A DNA stretch of 53,620 bases, taken from Gonapodya sp. JEL0774. Lineage: Eukaryota; Monoblepharomycota; Monoblepharidomycetes; Monoblepharidales; Gonapodyaceae. Of the stretch, positions 1-38,776 are shown one piece after another. The translations under genes and the position numbers were made by a program. Each line of letters starts with the position of its first letter. Within the stretch, counting starts at the first letter, position 1. The notes under the pieces are model-generated. The model was not told the DNA's origin, did not search any database, and saw only the letters and a list, made by a program, of their open reading frames with translations. The stretch is from positions 1-53,620 of the forward strand of contig JADIIX010000148.1 in the NCBI GenBank assembly GCA_027604505.1, read 5' to 3'.

Positions 1-2036
1 ATCATCTTATTCTTTCTTACAGAAATCAAATAACTTCAACAGGTGGAGTGTACGATGTCACTTCAGGGCAATGGACCTCGCCACGTTCTTGGGCAACGAA
101 CACGAACTGGATCAACGACAACTTAGCTTCCATAGTCTTGCAGTAAGTTTGGAGTTGCTACCTCCCACAATACTGGCTCTTTTCATGTGGTGTTGGATTT
201 CGGATTTTAGATCTTCAAATCCTATGACATCTACCATCACCGCCGTTGCAACCACCGGTACCACTGCTTCTGCCCAGCTTGAATTTACTACCGTCTCTTC
301 AACGGATGTTTCTATTACATTTACAACTTTTGAAACGACCACGTCAGTCATGCAAAGAAGTTCCACAATTACTCAGTCTGCTGAAACATCAGGTTCGACT
401 ACTACTTCAATAAACGAACCAGTGGAGACTACGGGCAGTTCAAGCTTGTCTACTAGCTCGAATGTGTTTAATATTTCGTCTACGGCGACTACCTCTGTTT
501 TGCCATTCTATACAACATTCACTTCAGAAAGTACCACCATGACACCTCAGCAAACGTCTGTGGAAACTGCCCCACCAGAAACTTCTCAGTACTCCACCAC
601 GTTTGTCTTGTCGACAGTTCCTCTTGACACCCACACTACATCTGGGACCACTGACCACACGTCCAGCACAAAATTGATTTCCACAACCGAGCTGAGCCTC
701 ACGAGAGTGTGAGTCAGCCTTCTGTTAGACTGCACGCACCTGTTTTGATATCGATCACTTGGCTGTGTAGCTCAACGAGTGCTGCCACCACATCGAAGAC
801 GGGAATCACGTAAGCAGTGTCTGATGGTGCTTTGTGGAGCACATGGAGCTATGTTTTAATTCAAGGGATGGAAACACAACCTCCAGGACCAAATCAGTCA
901 CGCGAACGACGACAAAAACGCCCGCTTATTCCAGCACCTCCACAAAAGGGCTGCGTACGAGCTCCACTGCGCGGAAGACTTCGAGCAGGAGTACAAGCAC
1001 GACAACTTCGAAATCGAAAACTAAAAGTGCGACCACATCGGGGACGAGAACTACGACGTAAGTGCCCCGTTGGTAGAGCACCATGGCCTCCCGCACCAGT
1101 TTGCAATTTTCCCTGTCTGTAGGAGAAAATCTACATCTACTACCACTCGCACCAGCGCTAAACGAACGACTAGTGTGACGTGGGTACTAAATGTACCCAT
1201 CACGATTTGAAACGCAAATTCTACCAACCCCGCATGTTGTAGTCGAACCCGCACGAAAACTCTCACTACCACTCAGAAGAGAACTTGTGACAGCATTTAT
1301 GCCGCACACAGTCATGGTGCTCCCATGTCTGCGCAAGACTTTTTGGACTGGGAGCAATGGCGATGCTCGATCTGTAAGCTTGCCTGACCAACACCGGAAC
1401 CTCAATTGTATGCTAACACCGGTCAAACACCAGGGTTCCCTTACGGTATCGGGAAACGATCATGCGACACAATCCACGATTGCTTTATGGCAGGATCCCC
1501 GATGGTCGATGCAGATTTCAAGGACTGGAAAGCCTGGTATGCTTGGGCTTTCTTTCTCGGACCGCCATAACTGCTGACCAAACTCCGATTTGCGCGTGCT
1601 GTTATTAAGGTCTTGTCAAACGTGTAGGTTTATTTGAGCTACTTTCTCACTGTTACTTTGAACTGAATTGTTCACCTACAGGGTTCCCTGGAGGCATTGT
1701 GAAGACTTGTGATTCGATCTATTTCGCGTACAACTCCGGTGTTCTCATGACTGTCGAGGACTATCTCAACTGGGAAAGCTGGTGCGTTGCTTTGACTGTG
1801 TATCCCTTGACAGGAACATTCCGGACCTAGGAGGTATTCACCCGGTTCCTTGCTTCGGTACCCTCACACAACTACAGGAGCTGCAAAACATGTAAGTTTC
1901 TATCCGACTTTGACTTACTTCCTCTCCAGCAACTCATTCAATTAACTATTTAACAGGGTACCCTCGTGGGATCTCCTGTGGTGGCAACTGGCAGTGCCAG
2001 AGTGATCGCTGTCTCGGAGGTCGTTGCGTTGCTTGA
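1..2036 (+). CDS. Secreted Ser/Thr-rich protein with C-terminal tandem Cys/Trp modules (5' end missing)
   Basis: Partial gene entering from the left edge. Exons read as 23-142, 211-708, 771-809, 866-1057, 1123-1179, 1243-1373, 1434-1536, 1610-1623, 1682-1781, 1878-1891 and 1957-2036, all with GT-AG introns and consistent phases to the TGA at 2034-2036. The first exon (GGVYDVTSGQW...NWINDNLASIVLQ) looks like the end of a folded domain that I do not recognise. It is followed by a long Ser/Thr-rich, probably O-glycosylated linker; exons 771-809, 866-1057 and 1123-1179 are all multiples of three and phase 2. Then come three copies of a Cys/Trp module (see the repeat entry) and a Cys-rich tail (GISCGGNWQCQSDRCLGG). 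The same module ends the GH5 gene at 11620-14237. A cell-wall or substrate-binding extracellular role is inference. Confidence 0.75.
1610..1623 (+). other. 14-nt micro-exon of module 2
   Basis: GTCTTGTCAAACGT, preceded by an AG (ttattaag) and followed by gtaggt. Joined to TG of the upstream exon and GG of the downstream exon it reads W-S-C-Q-T-W. It converts phase 2 to phase 1, exactly what the next exon (starting GG-TTC) needs. Confidence 0.75.
1878..1891 (+). other. 14-nt micro-exon of module 3
   Basis: GAGCTGCAAAACAT, between an acceptor (actacag) and a consensus donor (gtaagt). It reads W-S-C-K-T-W across both junctions and restores phase for the last exon (YPRGISCGGN...), which ends at the stop. 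Confidence 0.8.
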
Positions 2037-8200: not shown

Positions 8201-8653
8201 TTACATATTTCCACTGATCTCGACCTTCTGAATATTGTTAGAAGACCTTTCCGAGAGGAACAGTCTTTCAATCTGAATTTATTGGTACCATGTATGTAGC
8301 TACAACCCAGTGCCAAGACAAGGTTCAGGCACCCGGTGAGCTCAGAATCGTAGATTGCTTATTCGTTTTATGCTATTGTCAATTTTAGAATGAATCCGCC
8401 GTCTTTATATCCGCCACGACACCAGCCTCCGAACCCTTCCGCCGCCAATTTCAAAAACTGTGCACATGAAATCCCCTTCAGATTGGTCTGGCTTATGTCG
8501 TTTCACGATGTGCTGTGTTGGCAGTGTTCAAATGTGAACCATAACTGAGCCAACCGGCAATATTGATCTCGAGGATCTGGCGTTACCTTGAAAATCCCGC
8601 CGTGGCCTCAGAAGATGGCCAGTCGTAATCAATGTCTGTTTGAGGATGGCAAG
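5203..8653. other. Long gene-free stretch
   Basis: About 3.4 kb between the starts of two divergent genes. Open frames such as 5652-6041 (+), 6226-6519 (+), 6710-7216 (-) and 7290-7865 (+) have no domain, no signal peptide and no convincing exon partners, so I call none. Pyrimidine-rich tracts lie near 5820-5870 and 7440-7560. Promoters of both flanking genes should lie here, but I see no distinctive element I can defend. Confidence 0.5.
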
Positions 8654-11169
8654 ATGGCTCGCTCTGCATCTCTGCTAATCGGCACCGTGGCAGCAGTTCT
8701 CGCTGTCACCGTTCCTCGGCATGTGTGGGCCCAATCACTGGCCGATGACTGTGCGTTCATCGAGAAGATGTTCACACAATCAGGTGTTACCATTCCTTGG
8801 ACTGTCGGACAATGTTGTGACTATAGTGGAGATCTCAATGCCATCCAGTGTTTTCTGGGACGCGTGGTCTCCATAGCCTTCCTGTCCGTTGGACTGAGTG
8901 GCTCCATCCCCGATCCGCGAGGATTGACATCCTTGAGGGTGCTTGACTTGTCGAGCAATTCATTGACGGGAACTCTACCTGACTTTTCCGGATTGAGCTC
9001 ACTTTCGACCCTTGAACTTCACAATAACGACATCACGGGCAACATTGACGGCAAGATTCCCTCCAACGTAAATCTATGCGTTCTCGTTTTCGATGGGGGC
9101 AGCACGGACAATCCAAATATGTACAGTTGTGCTGGAAACATTCCCGGCAGCTGCGCCAACGTGAAGAGGGGAGGAGCGGATTGTGGAGGTGGCGCTCCTG
9201 CCCCTCCTCCTCCCCCTGCCCCTGCCCCAGCACCTCCTCCCCCAGCACCCCCTGCACCTGTCCCAGCACCCCCTGCACCTGTGTCTGCGACACCGCCTGC
9301 GCCTGTGCCAGCGCCTGCTGTAACTGGCGGTTCTGTTTCCAGTACATCTACTGCACTCAGATCTTCATCCGGTATTCTAATCTCATCTATTGGCACAATC
9401 TCCGTTAAGCAAGGAGCTTCAGATAGCTTCATAAGTACATCATCAACTAAATCGCCGAGCACGCAATTAACCACGGGATTGGATTCTACGATGTCTACCA
9501 GAAGTATGCCTGGTACAGTTACTGTAACAATGTCCAACCTTTTGAGGAGTACCGCCACCGACACCGATGTTAGTTCACCTGCCAATCCAACTCAATCAGA
9601 GCCTGGGTCTGGATTTCCAGTTCCAGCCGTGGTTGGCACGGTTGTAGGTGCAGTCGTAGTGGTGATGGTGGCACTCGTGTCTTTTATTAGGTATGCGTCC
9701 TTCCTCCTTTCAGAACTGTCCTCGTGAGCATTTTTCAGATTTCCCGAATTTTGCAACATGACAATCAAGCTGGAAAAAGTACAACGCAACACCGGCTCAG
9801 CCACAAAAGGAGGGATCGATCAATCATTTCAACGGTGAGCTCTCCTTTTCGGATCTTGTGCAGATTATCCCGGCTCCCTGATGTGTAAACCCTCTCACTA
9901 CTTATGCCATTCAGCATGGTCGGCAAATTATCCGTCACATGTTCCTCCAGGGAACACTCTGTATGGTCCGCCGACGCCTCAAAGATACGCTCCAATTAGC
10001 TTTAACGGTTCCCAGTCTTTCCCGGTATACCCGTCGTACCCTGTCGGAGATCGCCCAGCTGGCCCTGTATACCCGTCACAGCGTGCCGGAGATCCCCCAG
10101 CAGAAACTCCAAGCAGGAGTGTGTCAGCGAGCGCAACGATCAGCAGTTCAGGCGTCACTGCTCAGAGAAGCACCGTGAGTTCACTGTTTGAACCGTGTGA
10201 TGAACTGCGGCGAGTTTCGCAGTCTTGTGTGGTTCCCAAGATTCTGATCGCGTTCACGTCACTGTGTGTATTTGTTACTTGATTCAGCCTCACGTGAGCC
10301 ATCTATTGCCTAGTTACTAAAAACCGCCGACTTACATCAATTGGTCTGTGTATGCGATCGGTAACTCAGTGGTTTTTCAGCTTCGTATCAAGCTCTCAAG
10401 GCCTCTCCAGCAGCTCGAGTGTGGACTATCCAGGAACTGAAACGCTTGCTGTAATGACCGACGTGGGTTCTACGTCCGTTCTTGGAGTTACATTTGAAAC
10501 CTGAACGAGCATGGGTACTTCCTCGAAGTTTACGCCGAGCAATGAAGATGAAATGCAAGTGCAAATCGGGGAGTACGTTCGAATCCGGACTTTGTTTGCG
10601 GACGGTGGGTCTTCTTACTTTGGAACGATAGCGAACGGTGACTTCAGATCACACTCCTCACTAAAACAATGTCGAACAATGAAACTAGGGTGGGCCATAG
10701 TCGAAAGACCGTCCACTAGGGAGTACGGCATGCTTCCCCTGTGAGTGCGTGGCTGCAATGACGGCCAAAAGTAAGATATTGAAAACCTACCTTCTTCTCG
10801 GAAACAGTGATTGTCTAGATATTCCCCGACCCACAATTGAAGGGTCATTCAAACGTCAAATCCAGAGCCGAAGGACGGAGTCCGCATCTCCTTTCGCTAT
10901 TGATGCTCTCCTCTCAGCACGGCAAGGTAATGGGACAATCATTCCCACCAACGTCGTAAGAAGTGACCATGTGAGCATAGCAAAGCCTCTACTTTTAAAC
11001 TCCACGGTAAAACTGTGTACTTTGAATGACCCATGTGGTTCTTCAGGTGCAGTCACTGCAGGCTTGGAGTCGTGATGTCCGAGGTCCTCCGCCTTCAGCG
11101 CCTGCCCCACTCAACTCTCGTACCGATTTTTACTCTGCAGCAGAAACACTTCCCACAGTACCTCGTTGA
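8654..11169 (+). CDS. LRR-transmembrane-SH3 protein, possibly disrupted
   Basis: Starts at 8654 with a signal peptide (MARSASLLIGTVAAVLAVTV), then an LRR domain (GLSGSIPD, LRVLDLSSNSLTGTLPDFSG, STLELHNNDITG), a Pro/Ala-rich stretch, a Ser/Thr-rich stalk and one TM segment (VVGTVVGAVVVVMVALVSFI) in exon 8654-9690. Exons 9770-9834 and 9915-10174 follow in phase with a basic then Pro-rich cytoplasmic tail. After 10381 a Ser-rich frame leads into an SH3 domain: PSNEDEMQV, IGEYVRIRTLF, ADG|W, YGMLPL, spread over exons ending at the DG (near 10605) and about 10671-10742, with further exons from about 10820 to the TGA at 11167-11169. An in-frame TGA at 10502-10504 precedes the SH3 part, and I could not find a phase-compatible join over 10175-10380. 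So either a small exon is missed or the gene is broken. Likely role: wall-to-cytoskeleton signalling (inference from architecture). Confidence 0.65.
10502..10504 (+). other. In-frame TGA upstream of the SH3 domain
   Basis: The Ser-rich frame beginning at 10382 (FVSSSQG...) and the SH3 frame (GTSSKFTPSNEDEM) are the same frame, interrupted by this stop. No GT-AG pair that I can see removes it. Confidence 0.6.
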
Positions 11170-11619: not shown

Positions 11620-14237
11620 TTAACTGACAATGACATTCGGGAACCCTGGAAACAATATGTTAAAAAGAAGATGCGTGAATCGACTATTTTACTCACAAGT
11701 CATGCATTTCCTGACGCGTCCAAAACCGACAAACAATTAAAGGGGTTCTCGTTCATAAACGAAGACTCATCAACGTCAACGTTCTGAACTCAACTCACCA
11801 CGCCGCCCAATCTGACACGTCCTGCGCGGTCATAGTTGTCCCCGACTTGAAGGATTGGTAGATCGTATCGCAGCTGCGAACGGCACCGATTCCACTTGGG
11901 AACCCTAGTATCCGAAGATTAAAAAGCGCGGATTACAAAACGGGTAACGCTTTCTGAGACCCATCTCTATAGAGCGGACTGATTCGGACTTACAAGTTGC
12001 GCAACCCCTTCAAATATACGAGACAAACCATCATTGCCGTGGGAAGTATTCGAGTGAGAGGATGTGGTTTCGTTTCTATAATTGAGCACTGTCATCCTCA
12101 CCAAGAGTCCCAGTCCAGATGGTCTTGTGCAGTGACAGTCGCACCACTTGTATATGCCGAGTAGATCACATCGCACGTGCGTGACTTGCCAATGCCGTTG
12201 GGAAACCCTTCGAATGCATGCAAATATCAAGTTGAAGAGTTCGTGAGCAATCGGAAAGCGGAGTTGGGGGCATCGCTCTCAATCCAGCGATCGACTTATC
12301 GGTTTTGCATGACCTACAGCCCAAGTAGCGAATGGGATTTCATCGTATTTTGAGTGAAGTCTTCCTCAATATTACACAACCATCCAACGCTGCCGAGATT
12401 GGACTCACCAAGCTTCCCAATCCTGATAATCCGAAACCGTCACCGCACCCACACCGCCCGCGATGTATGCTGCGTAGATGCTATCACAAGTACGTTGCAC
12501 CGTTGTGGGAGTTTGAACACCTGCGACGGGAGTCAAGGTTGCGGAGGTGGAATCTTGAGCTGATTCCGCGGCCAAGTTATTTGGGAGAACCGCTGTGCTT
12601 GTGAGTGTCGGGATTCCAGATGAGATGGTATTCGTGCGCGTAGTAATGGTCTTCAGCTTCTTGGTTTTGGTGGTCTTGACGGGTTTGGGTCTGGTGGTTA
12701 CGACCGAGTCCAAGAGTGTTGATTGGACTTGAGGTAGCGCAGCGTTTGTAGGTGTGGAAAGGAATGATGGTGCTATTGTAGTCGTTTTTGGAAGAGAAGG
12801 GACTGTCGTCGTACTGGAGGGTAGTGCGGGGACAGTCGTCGTACTCCTAGGTGGTGCAATTGTTTTTGTGGTCGTTGGTGGTTGTGGTGGAGTCACGGTG
12901 GTTGTCAGACGTGCTGGTACCGTTGTGGTGGTTGTCACGCGTGCTGCTATGGCAGTGGAACTTGTACTTGTCATGACCGGCAACCCTGTATCGGCGGCAA
13001 ACGAAATTCCTGCCGCTTTCATAGGGTTCGCGTACTGTGCTGGGTCTGTTACGTCACCCGACACTCCCGTGGGCGGAATGTGCAAGAAAGTGAGCCACGA
13101 CACGCCCTGCTGTTCCATGAATTTGGTGAGCGTCGTGTCTTGGCCGCCGTTGGGAGAGGTGGGGCTGGTAGCCGACGCAAATTCGGTGAGAACGACGTTG
13201 TAACCAGCTTTGATGAGAGCTGCAGCAGCGTCGGAGGCACCTTGAGCTCCCCAGTATCCTAATTTGGAGAAAGGCAAGGTGACGTGGGTTTCGATCGGAC
13301 AGTATCTCACTGCCGTGACATCACCACAGCATCGTGACCTCACCATGAATTGCCACTGCCTCATTGGTAAAAATGTGAGTTGCATTGTTGAAGACCAGTG
13401 TCTTGAATGCTTGAAGATCCTGGACTGCTCCTGCCGCGCTGGATCCACCTCCGATACTTGCGTACGTCATGAGGAGCACCGGAGTACTTGGAGCCTCGGA
13501 GCGGATAATCTTGTAGCAATCGGCCATCATGTTGATTGCGCCAGGAGATTGAGTCGAGGTGCTGTACGGTGGACCCCACTGGACGGGCTCGTTGTGGATT
13601 TCGAAGAGAACGTGAGTCTCAGCAGCGTATCGTTTGGCGTAGAAGGACCAGAAGTCGCGAGCATATTGAAGGCTAAACTTTCCATTGTTCGCACTGTTAG
13701 CTATGAAGCCGATATTTGTGAAGGTGTCACGGAGGGGAATTGGGGTGGGCAACAGCCAACATTATGCAGGAAGACCAATGCAGACATGAAAAAACCAATA
13801 CGAGCAAATCATAGACCATTAAAAAACGAAGGAGAACTTCTTAATGCTCATTGTCCGCTTGTCAGCGACTCTTGCACGTACTTACCCAACACAATGACGA
13901 CATACATGTTTGCCGCCTTGGTGCTGGCTACGATACTGTCAACCCTGCTTGCAGCATACCCTGGCTTGTTCCCCGTTCCAGCGGGGTAGTTCGGATCGAA
14001 TGTCTCCGCGTACAGGTGCACCGCATTGAAGTTGTAGGTGAGCATGTTGGCGATCTGAGCAGCAGGGACCGCGGGCGTCCATTCTGTGGAGGTGAAGGGA
14101 CCTCGCAGTGGTACGCCGGTGTCAGAGACGAAAGTCTTGCCGTTGAGCCTTGGACGGCCGCGATCGGCATACACCGACGGTGAGGGGACTACGAGTGCCA
14201 CAATCGCGGCGATGGGGAGCCAAGTGAGGAGCTTCAT
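11620..14237 (-). CDS. Secreted GH5-type cellulase/glycanase with Ser/Thr/Pro linker and tandem Cys/Trp modules
   Basis: Exons 14237-13886, 13700-13344, 13258-12409, 12313-12300, 12207-12102, 12007-11994, 11904-11799, 11710-11697 and 11645-11620; phases close at the TAA (about 612 residues). The Met at 14237 begins a good signal peptide (MKLLTWLPIAAIVALVV); an upstream Met at 14303 would add 22 residues. The catalytic domain shows FEIHNEP (acid/base Glu) and VVLTEFA (nucleophile Glu), plus IHGYWG, as expected for clan GH-A, family GH5-like. Endoglucanase or mannanase activity is inferred from the family. A Thr/Pro/Val-rich linker (SSTTTVP, TTTTTVPAR) leads to three modules like those at 1243-1891 and a short tail (FPNVIVS). 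The first micro-exon (12300-12313) has an AT instead of GT donor. Head-to-head with a second GH5 copy at 15381. Confidence 0.8.
11697..11710 (-). other. 14-nt micro-exon of module C
   Basis: GAAATGCATGACTT between an acceptor (cgcgtcag) and gtgagt. Reads W-K-C-M-T-W and puts the terminal exon (FPNVIVS, stop) in frame. Confidence 0.8.
11994..12007 (-). other. 14-nt micro-exon of module B
   Basis: GGGTTGCGCAACTT between an acceptor (atttgaag) and gtaagt. Reads W-G-C-A-T-W across both junctions. Confidence 0.8.
12300..12313 (-). other. Candidate 14-nt micro-exon with altered donor
   Basis: GTCATGCAAAACCG after a normal acceptor (gctgtag) encodes W-S-C-K-T like its paralogues. The following intron begins ATAAGT instead of GTAAGT, and the last exon base is G where the others have T, so the junction codon would be GGG (Gly), not TGG (Trp). 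Confidence 0.5.
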
Positions 14238-31279: not shown

Positions 31280-32128
31280 TCACGACTGGGGGACATTGTC
31301 CATCTCACTCCCCACTGCGAACCATTTCTGCCCAGCATTGATGGTTGTGGGCGGGGCAGCGACGACCACGGCTGGAGGTGGCGGGGCTGGAGCCGGTTTT
31401 GGTGCCGGAGCAGGTGCTGGAGAAGGTGATGGTTTTGGCGCGGGTGCAGCAGCAGCTGGCGGTGTGGGAGGAGGTGGAGGCGGTGAGGTAGGTGCCTTTG
31501 CGGCGGGCGGCGGGGCAGGTGCAGGTGCAGGTGCCGGCCAAGAGGGTGCCGCAACTGGTGGAGCCGGTGCGGGAGCGTTTGGCGCTGGTGCAGGTACAGG
31601 TGCACTTGGAACCGGCGCTGCGGCAGGAGTTGGTGCCATGACCGGTGCAACAGTTGGTGCAGCGGTTTTGACCGGTAGAGAAGGCATCGTGGTTGAGGAA
31701 GACCACATCGTCGAAGATCCCATCATTCCACCCCCCACATTACTGGTGATTTCACCCGCGGCAGCAGCTGCAGCTGTGGTCCCAGCCGCGTCTTTCTCAT
31801 TCGCAAGTACCGCAGCATTCTTGCCATTGTTCGTATCCGCCATCCCATCCGCCATCGCTGCCGCCCTGTTCTTGCTCACGACCACCCCAACAGCCGTTCC
31901 CACCGCGACGACCACCAGAGCTCCCACCACGATCAACGCGGCGACCCATCTGCGCTTGGGAAGCCACGATCTCCCCGATCCGCGAGCGCCGGATTCGTCC
32001 GTGACGCGGGACGAGACGACTGCCACGCCGCGAGGCAGGTGCTGGGCGTGTTCGAGGTGGGGACCGCCTTGGCCGAATCCGGAGTAGAGTTTGGAGTGTG
32101 CGGGCGTGAAGGTGGTCATTGAAAACAA
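31280..32128 (-). CDS. Single-pass membrane protein with Ala/Pro-rich ectodomain
   Basis: Single exon, 282 residues; Met at 32119 is an alternative start. A short cytoplasmic N-terminus ends in basic residues (LPKRRW) followed by one TM helix (VAALIVVGALVVVAVGTAVG). The rest is Met/Ala-rich then a long Pro/Ala stretch (PAPAPAPPPAAKAPTSPPPP), ending in INAGQKWFAVGSE. The layout matches the N-terminal part of the genes at 33107-34291 and 37345-38776, but no expansin-like domain follows here. A further exon cannot be excluded because the C-terminus may be spliced near 31290. Confidence 0.6.
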   Translation of the reverse strand: MFSMTTFTPAHSKLYSGFGQGGPHLEHAQHLPRGVAVVSSRVTDESGARGSGRSWLPKRRWVAALIVVGALVVVAVGTAVGVVVSKNRAAAMADGMADTNNGKNAAVLANEKDAAGTTAAAAAAGEITSNVGGGMMGSSTMWSSSTTMPSLPVKTAAPTVAPVMAPTPAAAPVPSAPVPAPAPNAPAPAPPVAAPSWPAPAPAPAPPPAAKAPTSPPPPPPTPPAAAAPAPKPSPSPAPAPAPKPAPAPPPPAVVVAAPPTTINAGQKWFAVGSEMDNVPQS

Positions 32129-33106
32129 ATACGGTGGGACGCAACGTGAAACGTGTTTGGAAAGTTGCGCGGACTGTTTCTTATATGAAAAAGACCTGGT
32201 GAAAGGGTCTCAGGGGTTGTCACGATGATCTGGGTGCCCCTGATCGAGACCCACACACAAGCCGCCATCATCACAGGTCGCCTGAACTTCGCAACGGAAA
32301 AGACCATAACAAATATAAATAATGAACGGTTCTTTTGTGCGGAGAGTCTCGTGCAGCACTGATGAGTGTCAGAGAGCGAGGAAGATGAACCTTTGTCGGC
32401 CATAATCTTCGAGGGCCGGGTTCGCTGTTAGATGAATGTAATACTGTCGATGATGTAGTATGATATGGAACGAGCATCACCGGTAGTCCTCGGCGTTCTG
32501 ATTGGCTCCCTTGAATGGTTGTTTTCCCCGTTCTCTCTCCTGCTCTCCGTGCTGCGGTTGTACTCGTCCATGGTGCAGGTCGGACCTGTTGGCTTGTAAT
32601 GATACTGTTTGGGGCATCGTCAAAGCCCTCAATCGTTTGATTCAACGATAAAGATTTAATCACTTGGCAAAAGTGTTTGTACAGATACAGCGGGTCGCGC
32701 GTGCGAAGCAGCGATTGCCCTTATCCCACCAAATGATAGGCGATACCACACGAGCACTTCATCTGCCTTCATTTGTTCGACGAAATGAAACCTCTCTTTC
32801 TGCGGTATGCGTACACTCGATGGAGCGTTTAGAAGTTGCAACCTTTCACCCTCGATATAACGGACGGATTTGAAACATTGAAAGAAACGAACATACAAAC
32901 AAATGACTATAATCAACAACTCTCCCAAAGTGCAGAGCGCCTACGCGCCCGCATCCATCACGACATAATATCCGGATTACCCAGCTATTCTACAACCCGC
33001 CATCGACCCGCAACAACGAGGTGAAAAGTCCACATATACAACCAGGGGTTCGATAATATCACCGTCTGATGCAGCCGAAACCACGTCCTGGCGTAATGAC
33101 ACCGAC
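32129..33106. other. Intergenic
   Basis: No supported gene. Open frames at 32271-32663 and 32656-32928 (-) have no motifs. Confidence 0.45.
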
Positions 33107-34291
33107 CTAGAAGTGGTTGCCCGCCTGCACGGCCCTCTTGGTGGTGGTTGCGGCAGCGACGACGGCGGGGGTGGGTGCCATGGGGACGAGGACGGAGGAC
33201 GTCTACGCATAGAATGAGGACAACCGAAATCAATTCATTGACCCCGCTGAGTGCGCGTCCCTCCCCTGCCTCTTCACTCACCGCGACTTGTTGCCTCTGA
33301 GTCGTCTGCGCTCTCGTCGTGGTGGCCAAGGGTCTCATGAGCGCACTCGAGGTAGGCACTGCAGCCGGTGCAGGTGCCGTTGAAGCCACTGCCACCGCGG
33401 TCGTGGCGCTCAGTGCAGCAGTTGAAGCAGATCGGGATTGCACGACGACCGACCAGCTGCTGGCCACGTTCATCACGGCGTTTGTGGAAGCCATGACGAC
33501 GGCTGCGGAGCTCGTCATTGTGGTGGCTTTGGTGGTAGTCTTGGAGGTGGTCTTGGCGAGATTGGAATGGCGACCCGAGGTGCAGGGCGAACAAGAACCG
33601 TTAAGCCGACCGACCATCATCAGCGACTGCATCGATCGACCCATACGCCCACCTTCATCATCATCGTTGTCGAGCTCATGCTCATATCCGTCTGCTGCTG
33701 CGCGACCACGGCTCCAACTCCCGCATCGTTGGCTTGTGCGGCCACCTGGTTGTTCCTCACGACCACCACAACCCCCACCACCGCGGCAACGATCACAAGT
33801 ATGGCACCGATGGCGATCCCTACGATAATCTTCGTTCGGTTCTTCGAGCTTGCGCCGGGAAGGTCCTGCTTATCCGGCTGGAAGATGGCTCGGCCTCCGG
33901 GACCCCGCCCGGCCCCTGTGTTGAAGGCCCTCACCCCGCCAATCCGCCTCGACTCCTCCTGCGTCCGCCACTGTTTTGAGTCCCATTGACCCCACTGCAC
34001 ATATTGCTGCGACGAGCTGTCCCACCGTCTGGAATCTCCCTGGGGTGGTGGGCCGACCGCATCCCACTGCAGCTGGCGAGAATCGCCCGCCCCCTGACCC
34101 TCGTCCGACGGAGCGAGACCCCACTGAATCGACTCTCCGGGCGTCTGCGGCTGCATGTACTGGGACTGCGCTCCGTAGGGCGCCATTGATTGAGGAGGAG
34201 TCCGGCGGGAAGTGCCGGTGTCCTGGACGTACTCCATCTCCGGAGGCATCTGGGAGTACGGGAACCGTCGGTCGTTCGGGTAGTTGGACAT
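33107..34291 (-). CDS. Single-pass membrane protein with Ser/Thr-rich ectodomain
   Basis: Three exons in phase: 34291-33653, 33551-33282 and 33202-33107, 334 residues. The cytoplasmic N-terminus (about 150 residues) is Gln/Pro/Tyr-rich with repeated QWD and QWG motifs. A basic patch precedes the TM helix (IIVGIAIGAILVIVAAVVGV). Outside, a Met/Ser/Thr-rich stalk (KTTSKTTTKATTMTSSAAVV) ends at QAGNHF and a TAG. The first donor (gtgggc) is not consensus, so that join is moderately certain. Similar in layout to its neighbours at 31280-32128 and 37345-38776. Possibly a wall sensor or anchor (inference). Confidence 0.6.
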
Positions 34292-35208
34292 GGATGCCGG
34301 GTTGCAAACGTAGATTTTTCGTGCGGGTTGGGTTTTGGGTTTGGTCGGTGCAGAACAAATGCGCCCAGAACTTGTGCTGTGAGGCGTCTGCGGCAACCTA
34401 CACCTGTGGTCCCAAGATCAGCCAGCCGCAAAGCTCGAGAATACAATGTGTATTTGTTTCTTGCAGTCCAGATCAGTAGACAGTTCACAAATGGGGACCA
34501 TAAAAGTGTTTTGTCTTACCCCGCAAAATCAGAGCGGGTTGACCCCCCTGTTGATTTCCTTCTTGCCCTTGCGGACGTGAGAGATCCGTGTTCACTCAAG
34601 GGTCGTCAACGTCAACGTCAACGCAAATAAATCAAAAGCCTCCTGCCGAATGCTTGAAGCATCATAAGGACCGCTTTTGTTGATGTCTGGAATTAGGTGG
34701 GCCGATGGGTCTTACCATAATATGAAAACATATCCGTTGCAGGGGACAAGGGACAAAAAGTCCGTCGATTTGGGAAGAGTGCAGTGATAAGGTGCGTTGA
34801 GGATGCGCAAGTGTCATCATCTAAGAGACGAAACAGGAGTCTTTCGGTATGTTAGTGGTAGTCCAACAAAAATGCACCTCAACGAACACATAGCACAATA
34901 TCCGAATCCACCGTCACCCTCATGCCCTCCCCACCACCCCTCCATCCTCCAATATCCATCCTCGAAGTCTCACTCCCTCTGGTTTCTAGTTCTGTTTTCA
35001 GCACCCACCCCGCCGACGACAAACAAACCTCGCTGGCTTCATCGTTTCCACGACAAGAGCGCTGCGACTCCAGGCCACCCTCGGGGTTCTTCAGGGGACA
35101 TGATGGCCGATCTGAACACAGTGCAAAACGAACGGAGAACAGATTGGTGAGCTCTTCCGCGGCCGGTTTGGTGGATGGGGTTTTGGGTGCGGGCTGGCTG
35201 TTAAGTGG

Positions 35209-35799: not shown

Positions 35800-37344
35800 T
35801 GGAGGAGCTCAAAGTGAACCGAATGGAGGCCGGCGATGAGCCGCACAGAGTTGGTCACAAAGCTTTTCAAGCGCCGCATGGGTGTTCACACATTCATACA
35901 AAGGTCTCCTCAAGCAGAAACCCCGAAACCTTTGGCTTTCGCTACAGCGTTTATTCTGTAGATTGTCCCGGTTGTGGTATGCTCTGGTTTCAGATGATGT
36001 GTAGCAGGGACACGCTCAACTCGTGGGAGGAACACAGCAGAACATGTGTTAAGTCCAAGGGGAAGGAGATGGGAATCCTACTTTGAAACATTCTTGGTCT
36101 CGTTGTTTGTGCAATATGTAGCTGACCTGTTCGCTGGGAATGAAGGTTTCAATACAGTATGACTCTCTTCATTGGCCGTTTCAAGTCTTGTTCGACAACT
36201 GGCACGAGTCACGAACAACACATGGACTCCCTTTGCTTCGGTAGGTCTCTTTCGCACACCTCTATTTCGTATCTCTATTTGAATCACGTTCGGGGTCGAT
36301 TACAGGTCAAGAGCTTCGTGATTCGTCATAGTTCTTGATCTCGGCCAAGCATATATGCATGGAAATGAAAATCCATCAGTACAGGGTTGGGTACTGACTA
36401 CCTAAATGGGAGAAGATCTTGATGGTCAAAAGACAAGCTTATAAAAATATCGAACGGTCATCGCCCAGAGATTCGTAGCATCGTATTGACGAGAGACTCA
36501 GTCATACCATTGATCTCACATGCCGCAATGAAAGAGAAAAAACACTTCGGGCTTGTGTTGCTTCCGCAAGCATTTTTCGTTCTTCGTTCCGATTGCCGGG
36601 CCGACGGCACAACATCCACATTCCGGAACGACGGTCACGGTGACGACATGCCGCTTCCAAGGCATGACATGTGACATGCCAGACGAACCTGGGTGCCTGA
36701 TTGAGAAACATGCACGGTTCGGGACGGGTTATGAGCCGAGGGACGGATATGTAATATGTATTTGCGTGGTGCGGTTGTCTATCAAGGAGGATCAAGGCTT
36801 CCAGATTGGTGGTGATATGGACAGGATGGGATTTTGGATTGGTTTCGTAAACATTTGCACGAATGTTTCCGAGTCGAAATGTCAAACAGGCAGAGCAAAC
36901 TAAGAATCAAAATTTAATAATTGAATTCAAATTTTCTCTTTCCACGCAGCCACACTGTTCCAAATATGGCAGGTATTATTATTGACATTGGACGCCCTTT
37001 GGACATGACCATGCAACGCTGGACTGGTCCAGAAAACAGCAGAAAACAAAGGGAAACATGAGCACGCAAACACTGGCGCTTGGTTCCCTGTACCTGTACG
37101 TTGCTTTGATTACTTTTACGTGTTGTAATACATTCAAGTAAAGTAAGGTTGACATGGGGGGGCTTCCACCGATGGGCTTGCTAAAGGTTGGCTTGCACAA
37201 ACCTTCCTTTTCAGGCCGTGCAGGGATGCAATGACCCTGAGGTGTTGACTTTACCAGGAGCAAGCCCAGCGGAAGGAAACTCTTGACATCTGATTTGATT
37301 CGAATCTCCCCTTTCACGCACACATAAAAGAAAGAAAAGGAGAG
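35800..37344. other. Intergenic
   Basis: No supported gene. An AT-rich stretch at 36900-36970 and CT-rich tract near 37300 may belong to the promoter or 5' UTR of the next gene. Confidence 0.45.
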
Positions 37345-38776
37345 ATGGAGCAGCCTCAGTTGGAAACCCAACTCGCAACAGGCGCATCAAGACACCACGC
37401 CAACTCGCTTCCCACTCACCACTCCCCCTCAATGTTCCCTTCCATCGCAGCCGCTGCCACCCCATCCCCACTATCCGCTCTCGACGCTAAAACCCACGAG
37501 GGTCTTCTTCCCGCTGATGCCCACTCTCCCAACACCCTCCAGGACCCACCAATGGCCGCCGTCAAAGTTCCCAGACGCCGCCTGCTGGCTCTCGTCGCAG
37601 GTGTCGCAGCCGCTGTCGCTATCGCAGTCGCCATCTCCGTAGGCGTGGTCGTGTCCAGGAGGAACAACGATGCAGCGGTGTCGGCCGGTGATGCCGCGAG
37701 GGCGGTCTCTGCGTCGGGCCAAGACGCTGTCGTGCCGGTCAGCGTGCAAGCCCAGGGAGCCGCTGTCACACTCGCCGTGCAAATTTCCACGACCACGGCT
37801 GCTCCTCTGGCCGCCACCTACACAACCACGACATCTCGTACTCCGAACGCGACGGTTGCGTCCGCCATCGGTGCCGCAACAACATCGGCACCTCCGGTCA
37901 TCGAGTACGCAGCGAGGCGCACCGTCACGTCTCCTGCAGCTGCAGCACCGGCACCGGCACAGCGAACGACAACTCGAGCCGTCTCACCTCAGGTCCAGCC
38001 CTCTCCGCCTCCTCCCCCACCTCCCCCACCTCCCCCACCTCCGCCTCCGCCTCCCGCGCCGGCTCCTCCCCCTCCTCGTCCTTCGCCTCCGCCCCGTGAG
38101 TTTGGATTTAGTTGTTTTGGTGGTTTGAACTTCATCTTCTGACCATTGTGTCATGCTCGATTAGCCCCTCCTCCACCCCCTCCTCCTCCACCGCCAACCG
38201 GCGGCTCTGGCCAGTACTCTGGCCAACTCACGTACTACTACCCTGCGGTGAGTGTCGCGTTTGTGTTTTCGTTGTGGTTCTGCGTTTCCGTTCGGACACA
38301 AAGAGTTTGTCTGACACCGCGCTTCACGTCTGTTTTTTGTCCCTCTCTCTCGCTTCTCTTTTATTTCTCCTTCCTAGGGCGGCCTCGGCTCGTGCGGTGC
38401 CCCCATCGGCGACTACGACAACGCGGTTGCTATCGTAAGTCTTGTCGCGTGTCGACATCGACACTTCCATCTCAACCCGCCCTCTCATTCCCCAACTCAC
38501 CTCATGCTCCCACCCCCATCTCCCTCTGGCCCTTCCCCCCCCCACCCCCCCCACCCCGCCCACAAGAACGTTGCCCAATCCTCCAGCAACGGCAACTGCG
38601 GCCGCACGGTGTGCATCTACTACCAGGGCCGGATGACGACCAGCGTTGTCCGTGACATGTGTCCCGGGTGCGCGTACGGGGACTTGGACGCCACTGTCAC
38701 GGTGTGGAACAATCTGGGAATCAGTTTGGGAGTCGGGAGGGCGAATGGGATGAGCGTGAGTTGTTTGTCTATTTAA
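37345..38776 (+). CDS. Membrane-tethered expansin-like (double-psi beta-barrel) protein
   Basis: Exons 37345-38095, 38165-38247, 38378-38434 and 38567-38776, 366 residues. Cytoplasmic N-terminus of about 75 residues ends in PRRR, then a TM helix (LLALVAGVAAAVAIAVAISV), a Thr/Ala-rich stalk and a polyproline tract. The ectodomain is barwin/expansin-like: GQLTYYYPAGG, LGSCGAPIGDYDNAVAI, CGRTVCIYYQG, VVRDMCPGCAYGDLD, ending GRANGMSVSCLSI. The Cys pattern and GDLD motif fit the DPBB fold (RlpA-like/expansin families). Such domains loosen or bind wall polysaccharide; here the protein would be held at the cell surface (type II topology, inferred). Confidence 0.85.

What the first reader, a model, noticed from the sequence alone, without database searches (positions are those of the whole stretch)
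1243..2036. Undescribed Cys/Trp module encoded by alternating long exons and 14-nt micro-exons with split Trp codons
Direct joining of the module exons is always out of frame (each ends TG, next starts GG-TTC). In each interval an AG...GT pair frames exactly 14 nt (1610-1623, 1878-1891) that reads x-C-x-T and completes Trp codons on both sides (TG|G and T|GG). Phase then closes to the stop at 2034-2036 through the Cys-rich tail. Module 1, where the tail is not interrupted, shows the same W-x-C-x-[IT]-W order, an internal control. I know no named domain with this pattern (W-[FY]-P-x-G-I, C-D-x-I-Y, D-W-x-x-W-x-C).
Basis: partly seen in the sequence, partly recalled or inferred. Interest (0 to 1): 0.85.

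Follow-up and report, generated by a model that had tools for sequence, protein, structure and literature searches.

The report
New fungal enzyme module with micro-exons
A water fungus carries dozens of copies of an undescribed small protein module, many of them next to its wall-digesting enzymes and often partly encoded by an exon of only 14 bases; it is probably a new kind of sugar-binding tag that ordinary gene finding can miss.

Summary
At 1243-2036 three ~39-residue Cys/Trp modules are spliced from long exons and two 14-nt micro-exons (1610-1623, 1878-1891) that split Trp codons (TG|G, T|GG). A splice-aware profile, built from paralogues uninterrupted across that stretch, recovers exactly this structure. 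Of 55 modules modelled in the genome, 25 carry the same 14-nt micro-exon at the same positions and phases. A genome-wide pattern search gives 26 hits, 24 of them these micro-exons; the reversed control gives 0. The organism is Gonapodya sp. JEL0774, a zoosporic fungus.

No Pfam family reached its cut-off and no PDB chain matched convincingly. In 12 of my 20 gene loci the modules lie beside GH5, GH7, GH16, GH18, GH28, GH45, polysaccharide deacetylase, pectinesterase or M60-type peptidase domains on the same strand; two of the 12 (both GH5) are below Pfam's cut-off. One GH5 gene is in this window. A G. prolifera GH26 protein has five modules.

Best reading: a new family of carbohydrate-binding or anchoring modules. 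Binding, fold and splicing at RNA level are untested.

The parts
22..1179 (+). Upstream exons of the same gene (truncated by the contig end): a 40-residue piece, then a Ser/Thr-rich stretch; modelled as 22-142, 211-708, 771 or 780-809, 866-1057, 1123 or 1126-1179
   Evidence: Splice combinations scored: 4 of 16 have no stop; no Pfam hit for the N-terminal piece
1243..1373 (+). Exon with module 1 up to RCSI; its only internal intron is in W32
1434..1536 (+). Long exon: end of module 1 (FPYGIG) and module 2 up to W27
1610..1623 (+). 14-nt micro-exon of module 2, (W)SCQT(W)
1682..1781 (+). Long exon: end of module 2 and module 3 up to W27
1878..1891 (+). 14-nt micro-exon of module 3, (W)SCKT(W)
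1957..2036 (+). Last exon: YPRGIS and Cys-rich tail CGGNWQCQSDRCLGGRCVA, stop; the tail matches only itself in the genome
13465..13671 (-). Second module gene: GH5 (PF00150) stretch, 24.9 bits, above cut-off
12405..13466 (-). One open frame of the second gene: GH5 C-terminal stretch (18.3 bits, below cut-off), Thr/Pro-rich linker, first module up to W27
12102..12205 (-). Second gene, module 2, long exon
11994..12007 (-). 14-nt micro-exon, (W)GCAT(W)
11799..11904 (-). Second gene, module 3, long exon
11697..11710 (-). 14-nt micro-exon, (W)KCMT(W)

Best explanation
1243-2036 is the C-terminal end of a Ser/Thr-rich, probably secreted protein with three copies of a new ~39-residue module: R-T-C-D-T-I-Y-A-A-Y-x-A-G-x-x-M-T-A-Q-D-Y-S-D-W-x-A-W-x-C-x-T-W-F-P-x-G-I-G. 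The family is an accessory binding module of carbohydrate-active enzymes. Proposed mechanism: each module is a small helical hairpin closed by its two cysteines; W24, W27, W32 and F/Y33 form an aromatic patch that holds polysaccharide; tandem copies add avidity and keep the enzyme on wall material. At gene level, introns inside two Trp codons leave a constitutive 14-nt exon; a long exon plus a micro-exon is a 39-codon unit between phase-1 introns, so modules can be duplicated in frame. Shown here: the module family, the exon structure by comparison, the phases, and nearness to enzyme domains (in single open frames in some genes). Inferred: secretion, fold, disulfide, sugar binding, constitutive inclusion. 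The exon structure alone I hold at about 0.95; the figure below is for the binding function.
For: Modules lie on the same strand as and next to GH5, GH7, GH16, GH18, GH28, GH45, polysaccharide deacetylase, pectinesterase and IMPa/M60 domains in 12 of 20 gene loci (GH5 at C39 and C140 below cut-off). One open frame holds module and enzyme at C148 (second gene) and C204, linker and enzyme at C119 and C79; C52 joins by ordinary introns into three modules plus GH45. G. prolifera GH45 has four modules and a GH26 five. Several GH45 relatives of other fungi carry CBM1 (PF00734) instead, e.g. P0005, P0007; this genome shows only 4 CBM1 hits. Over 55 modules W27 and C29 are invariant, W24 54 of 55, W32 53 of 54 (C3 and D4 were demanded by the seeds). 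Exon structure.
Against: No binding data and no confident structure (one 43-residue model with window rows only, pLDDT 69, pTM 0.42). The attached enzymes act on very different substrates, and one is a peptidase, which fits a general anchor or dock as well. In 8 of 20 loci, the finding's own gene among them, no enzyme domain was found (flanks partly unscanned). At C1, C31, C39, C105 and C140 membership in one gene rests on same-strand nearness; at C29 the open frame from the module ends about 350 nt before the first peptidase-family domain. No transcripts.
Confidence: 0.6

Rival explanations
1. Docking module: like fungal dockerins, the modules bind a partner protein or scaffold and gather many secreted enzymes into a complex.
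For: Small tandem Cys/Trp modules on enzymes of very different substrates, also on a peptidase, resemble the way dockerins are distributed; a Piromyces set lists dockerins on GH5, GH6, GH8, GH9, GH10, CE6 and others (passages of PMC12421816).
Against: No match to the fungal dockerin family CBM_10 in the module scans or in the genome (whose control rang nowhere). No scaffold was sought or found. The aromatic residues suit sugar binding.
Confidence: 0.18
2. Self-anchoring: the modules bind the fungus's own wall or sheath and display enzymes at the cell surface, rather than target the food.
For: The breadth of attached enzymes, including deacetylases and a peptidase, and module genes where no enzyme domain was found but Ser/Thr-rich stretches are long (by eye).
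Against: No localisation data; cellulases and pectinases with modules fit substrate targeting equally.
Confidence: 0.13
3. The micro-exon is a regulated switch: skipping or including 14 nt shifts the frame and truncates the protein on purpose, as with Xlr2 in Trichoderma.
For: 14 is not a multiple of three, so skipping shifts the frame; a switch-like micro-exon is reported in Trichoderma virens (abstract and passages of PMC11121469).
Against: Genes with several modules would need several skips; paralogues without the introns exist, so the switch is not needed for the module; flanking introns and splice sites look ordinary.
Confidence: 0.07
4. Artefact: the 14-nt pieces are chance AG..GT frames and the modules are not spliced this way.
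For: No transcripts; eight AG..GT pieces of length 3n+2 exist in the second interval.
Against: 25 modules with the same length and phases and 25 different sequences in which the third bases of the Cys and Thr codons vary; 24 of 26 genome-wide pattern hits in modules, control 0; 0 of 4,474 control seeds.
Confidence: 0.02

Closest known systems
CBM1, fungal cellulose-binding domain (PF00734)
   Same: Small Cys-containing accessory domain beside Ser/Thr/Pro-rich linkers on secreted plant-wall enzymes; present on several GH45 relatives where Gonapodya has these modules
   Different: No sequence match of the modules to PF00734; here about 39 residues, two cysteines, in tandem, and also on chitin- and pectin-active enzymes
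Fungal dockerin / CBM10 (PF02013) of anaerobic gut fungi
   Same: Small tandem modules on many enzyme families (passages of PMC12421816)
   Different: No sequence match; no hit in this genome (control silent); no scaffold known here
LysM / CBM50 (PF01476)
   Same: By eye: C-x-x-I near the start, Cys-to-Cys spacing of 26 against 23 residues in this genome's LysM rows, similar length
   Different: No Pfam match; profile-profile probability under 1%; the genome's LysM hits lie on other contigs
Conserved plant micro-exons (1-15 nt, fixed size and phase)
   Same: Tiny exon of fixed size and phase inside a conserved domain; a 14-nt case in Arabidopsis AT2G30695 is shown (passages of PMC8831610)
   Different: Fungal, and multiplied with a repeated module within one genome
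Xlr2 micro-exon of Trichoderma virens
   Same: A fungal micro-exon; the abstract says functional micro-exons had not been described in filamentous fungi
   Different: A single regulated switch in a transcription factor; here 25 copies, probably constitutive

Membership tests
Carbohydrate-binding module (CAZy sense, definition recalled) | Part of a contiguous carbohydrate-active enzyme | tested here: met
   Module and enzyme stretch in one open frame at C204 and in the window's second gene; GH45 and GH26 proteins of Gonapodya with modules. Only nearness at several other loci
Carbohydrate-binding module (CAZy sense, definition recalled) | Discrete fold | tested here: inconclusive
   Two helices at pLDDT 69, pTM 0.42, on an incomplete module; further fold jobs were not accepted
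Carbohydrate-binding module (CAZy sense, definition recalled) | Binds carbohydrate | not testable with these tools
   Needs a binding assay
CBM1 (PF00734) | Matches the family profile | tested here: not met
Fungal dockerin CBM_10 (PF02013) | Matches the family profile | tested here: not met
   genome search 77 also empty, but its control rang nowhere
LysM (PF01476) | Matches the family profile or the genome's own LysM rows | tested here: not met
   the LysM rows themselves find LysM chains in the PDB. Both profiles are of low diversity
LysM (PF01476) | Strand-helix-helix-strand fold (recalled) | not tested
   Fold search not accepted
Conserved micro-exon | Internal exon of 15 nt or less with fixed size and phase in a conserved coding context | tested here: met
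   25 of 55 modules
Conserved micro-exon | Inclusion seen in RNA | not testable with these tools
   No reads or cDNA at hand

The most novel reading that the evidence does not exclude
Gonapodya uses this module as a general attachment system of its own, a docking or wall-display domain that collects cellulases, pectinases, chitinases, deacetylases and a peptidase at the cell surface, parallel in function to cellulosomes, with module number multiplied through long-exon plus micro-exon units bounded by phase-1 introns.
Probability: 0.2. Interest if true: 0.85.

Novelty: new variant of a known kind. Interest (0 to 1): 0.68.

Why it matters
If right, a family of accessory modules on the wall-degrading enzymes of an early-diverging fungal lineage has gone unnamed, and in this genome it outnumbers CBM1 as far as the searches see (55 modelled modules, against 4 CBM1 hits in a search that ignores introns). 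It gives enzymologists a small new tag to test on cellulose, pectin and chitin. The recurrent 14-nt exon is a natural repeat experiment on how a fungal spliceosome handles very short exons, with paralogues lacking the introns as controls. It also warns annotators: the public protein for the C52 GH45 gene is fused to a dehydrogenase and lacks the first module.

Tried and rejected
LysM as a diverged relative: no support at sequence level (control 101, whose two best rows are designed proteins and whose further rows include LysM chitinases).

Pfam near-hits DUF7025 (0.012), DUF5419 (0.021, 0.62), EndoU_bacteria (0.08) and others above 2 are below their cut-offs or seen in single members; taken as chance. 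PDB near-hits at E 0.041 and above taken as chance.

The first two protein searches found nothing, probably because the allowed length range shut out long enzymes; the full GH45 query then named the organism (best 120 of 787 hits listed). Scan of viral contigs: 40 pattern matches, none a relative. My first genome pattern was mis-spaced and gave 0; the corrected one is.

Tree of modules: unresolved (0 starred branches), so no claim on single origin or on gain against loss; the micro-exon label is clustered (10 changes against a shuffled mean of 18.4), which near-copies alone can cause. For that count of 55 I kept alignments of 54 bits or more, dropped seven by name because their first exon belonged to another module or a false seed, and added two by hand (C2_47951, C148_12175). 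Seeds demanded a codon pair close to Cys-Asp, so the invariance of C3 and D4 is built in. Modules at C140, one more at C204 (5686) and one on C31 (167778), seen, are not among the 55. The first module of the second window gene counts as W27 only, as its micro-exon lacks a GT donor.

In some searches my minus-strand references for L033, L035, L024 and L078 all fell in one frame; the other frames were scanned. Not scanned with Pfam: flanks upstream of C66, C79 and C260 (before 6500), upstream of the first and downstream of the second C162 gene, L072 (C35) and L082 (C2).

U12 snRNA (for the AT donor): nothing, but the control rang nowhere. No Rfam family or tRNA in the window (ARAGORN with bacterial code).

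Nothing on such a module or on Gonapodya micro-exons in the listings of searches. Passages were read of PMC11121469, PMC6690862, PMC4494064, PMC8831610, PMC12421816; no paper was read whole.

Full report
What was claimed.

The sequence. Exons are 1243-1373, 1434-1536, 1610-1623, 1682-1781, 1878-1891 and 1957-2036, between AG and GT. The product is three modules and a six-cysteine tail: CDSIYAAHSHGAPMSAQDFLDWEQWRCSIWFPYGIGKRS / CDTIHDCFMAGSPMVDADFKDWKAWSCQTWFPGGIVKT / CDSIYFAYNSGVLMTVEDYLNWESWSCKTWYPRGIS / CGGNWQCQSDRCLGGRCVA. Omitting either 14-nt piece shifts the frame. Exons modelled from 22 on encode a Ser/Thr-rich stretch; the contig begins inside the gene, so its N-terminal part is unknown.

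Independent test of the exon structure. The window's own genome is held (25.0 Mb, 381 contigs). One module as query gave 60 places at E <= 1, which is also the number of candidates scored, so more may exist. Genes on C52, C2 and C1 hold modules that run without interruption across the W27-W32 stretch. From 11 of these I built a profile (in at least two rows the last columns read into a later intron) and aligned it to DNA with GT-AG introns allowed in all three phases. Over the loci I modelled 55 modules: 25 with introns in both W27 (TG|G) and W32 (T|GG), hence a 14-nt exon; 6 with the W27 intron only; 7 with a W32 intron only; 17 with neither. The 25 lie on eight contigs: C35, C39, C66, C119, C148, C162, C204, C260.

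Controls. 0 of 4,474 seeds in other DNA reach 20 bits; the six modules of the window score 54-90. In 7,200 shuffles of the spans of 24 micro-exon modules, 8 show a fitting frame and 0 one with Thr. The exact pattern AGGNNNTGYNNNACNTGTRNGT gives 26 hits in the genome, 24 of them among my 25 micro-exons (the 25th, C119:48357, has the donor GTAAGC), one in a truncated copy on C180 that resembles C260, one unrelated at C1:182817; the reversed pattern gives 0. The 25 micro-exons are all different; bases 1, 5, 6, 11, 12 and 14 never vary while the third bases of the Cys and Thr codons do. The Trp and Cys positions are favoured by the profile itself; the synonymous variation is not.

Organism. The spliced GH45 protein of C52 matches HDU93_007668 of Gonapodya sp. 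JEL0774 at 100% over 79% of the query, a monoblepharid fungus. The genome also has RIB43A, a flagellar (axonemal) protein family by general knowledge.

What the modules are attached to. Frames on the module strand were scanned with Pfam. Window minus strand: GH5, 24.9 bits, and a second GH5 stretch of 18.3 bits (below cut-off) that shares one open frame, 13466-12405, with a Thr/Pro linker and module 1. C204: GH7, with module end, linker and GH7 start in one open frame. C31: polysaccharide deacetylase in two genes. C39 and C140: GH5-like, below cut-off. C29: IMPa helical and N-terminal domains above cut-off, Peptidase_M60 below. C52: GH45, joined to the modules by an ordinary intron in my model. 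C79: pectinesterase, linker and enzyme start in one open frame. C119: GH18, likewise. C105: GH28, and C1: GH16 with CBM1 upstream. That is 12 of 20 gene loci as I divide them; at C2 (two), C35, C66, C162 (two), C260 and the truncated gene of the finding none was found, and some of these flanks were not scanned. In G. prolifera a GH45 has four modules and a GH26 has five. Of 121 proteins scanned (the 120 listed of 787 hits, and P0001), the profile finds modules in four, all from Gonapodya.

Is it known? No Pfam family reaches its cut-off and no PDB chain matches convincingly. LysM was the best guess by eye; profile comparison gives under 1%, while a four-row LysM profile finds LysM chains. Ten literature searches listed no description. 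The passages I read on Gonapodya enzymes name cellulases and pectinases (PMC6690862; PMC4494064) and do not mention such a module.

How it most likely works. A small domain with two cysteines, three nearly invariant tryptophans and a further aromatic, in tandem, beside enzymes for insoluble polysaccharides, is what a carbohydrate-binding module looks like. Several GH45 relatives of other fungi carry CBM1, and this genome shows only 4 CBM1 hits. The breadth of attached enzymes, a peptidase among them, also fits docking or wall display, which I keep as rivals. A low-confidence model of an incomplete module shows two helices, residues 15-24 and 30-38 of 43. For the RNA: the introns flanking 24 micro-exons are 51-147 nt; recognition across such short introns (intron definition, general knowledge) would allow a 14-nt exon without special help. 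As 14 is not a multiple of three, skipping it shifts the frame; I infer constitutive inclusion.

Limits. No transcripts, no binding assay, no confident structure, no DNA of G. prolifera; the tree of modules is unresolved.

Noticed in passing
window 12300-12313 (-): In the second window gene the first module's micro-exon GTCATGCAAAACCG is followed by ATAAGT instead of a GT donor: a possible AT-type intron, a decayed module or a sequence error.
   Followed up: partly
C52 (L023); public protein P0002: The public protein HDU93_007668 joins 2-hydroxyacid dehydrogenase sequence to the GH45 and lacks the N-terminal start and the first module; it looks like a chimeric gene model.
   Followed up: partly
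C39:73682-73879 and C140:14700-14512: A longer relative of the module, C-x-A-L-S-x-A-F/Y-x-S-G-K-Y-M-T-E-S-D-Y-L-x-W-A-T-L-x-C..., sits between the modules and the GH5-like domain in two genes.
   Followed up: partly
C180:24320-24600 (L085): A piece of a module with its micro-exon, very like part of C260, without the first half nearby: a truncated copy.
   Followed up: partly
window 31280-32209 (-), 33620-34417 (-), 37294-38142 (+): Reading frames with a hydrophobic stretch and Pro-rich or low-complexity sequence after it; a Gonapodya GH45 (P0006) has a similar N-terminal anchor, so these may be membrane-anchored secreted proteins (by eye).
   Followed up: no
window 8567-9727 (+): Leucine-rich-repeat-like protein with a Pro/Ala-rich linker and a C-terminal hydrophobic stretch; C35 shows a similar repeat-like frame upstream of its modules (by eye).
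   Followed up: no
C31, C29, C119, C2, C79, C105: Some modules have other introns, for example phase 1 in G13 or phase 0 after position 25, or the W32 intron in phase 2 instead of 1, so intron positions in the family are varied.
   Followed up: partly
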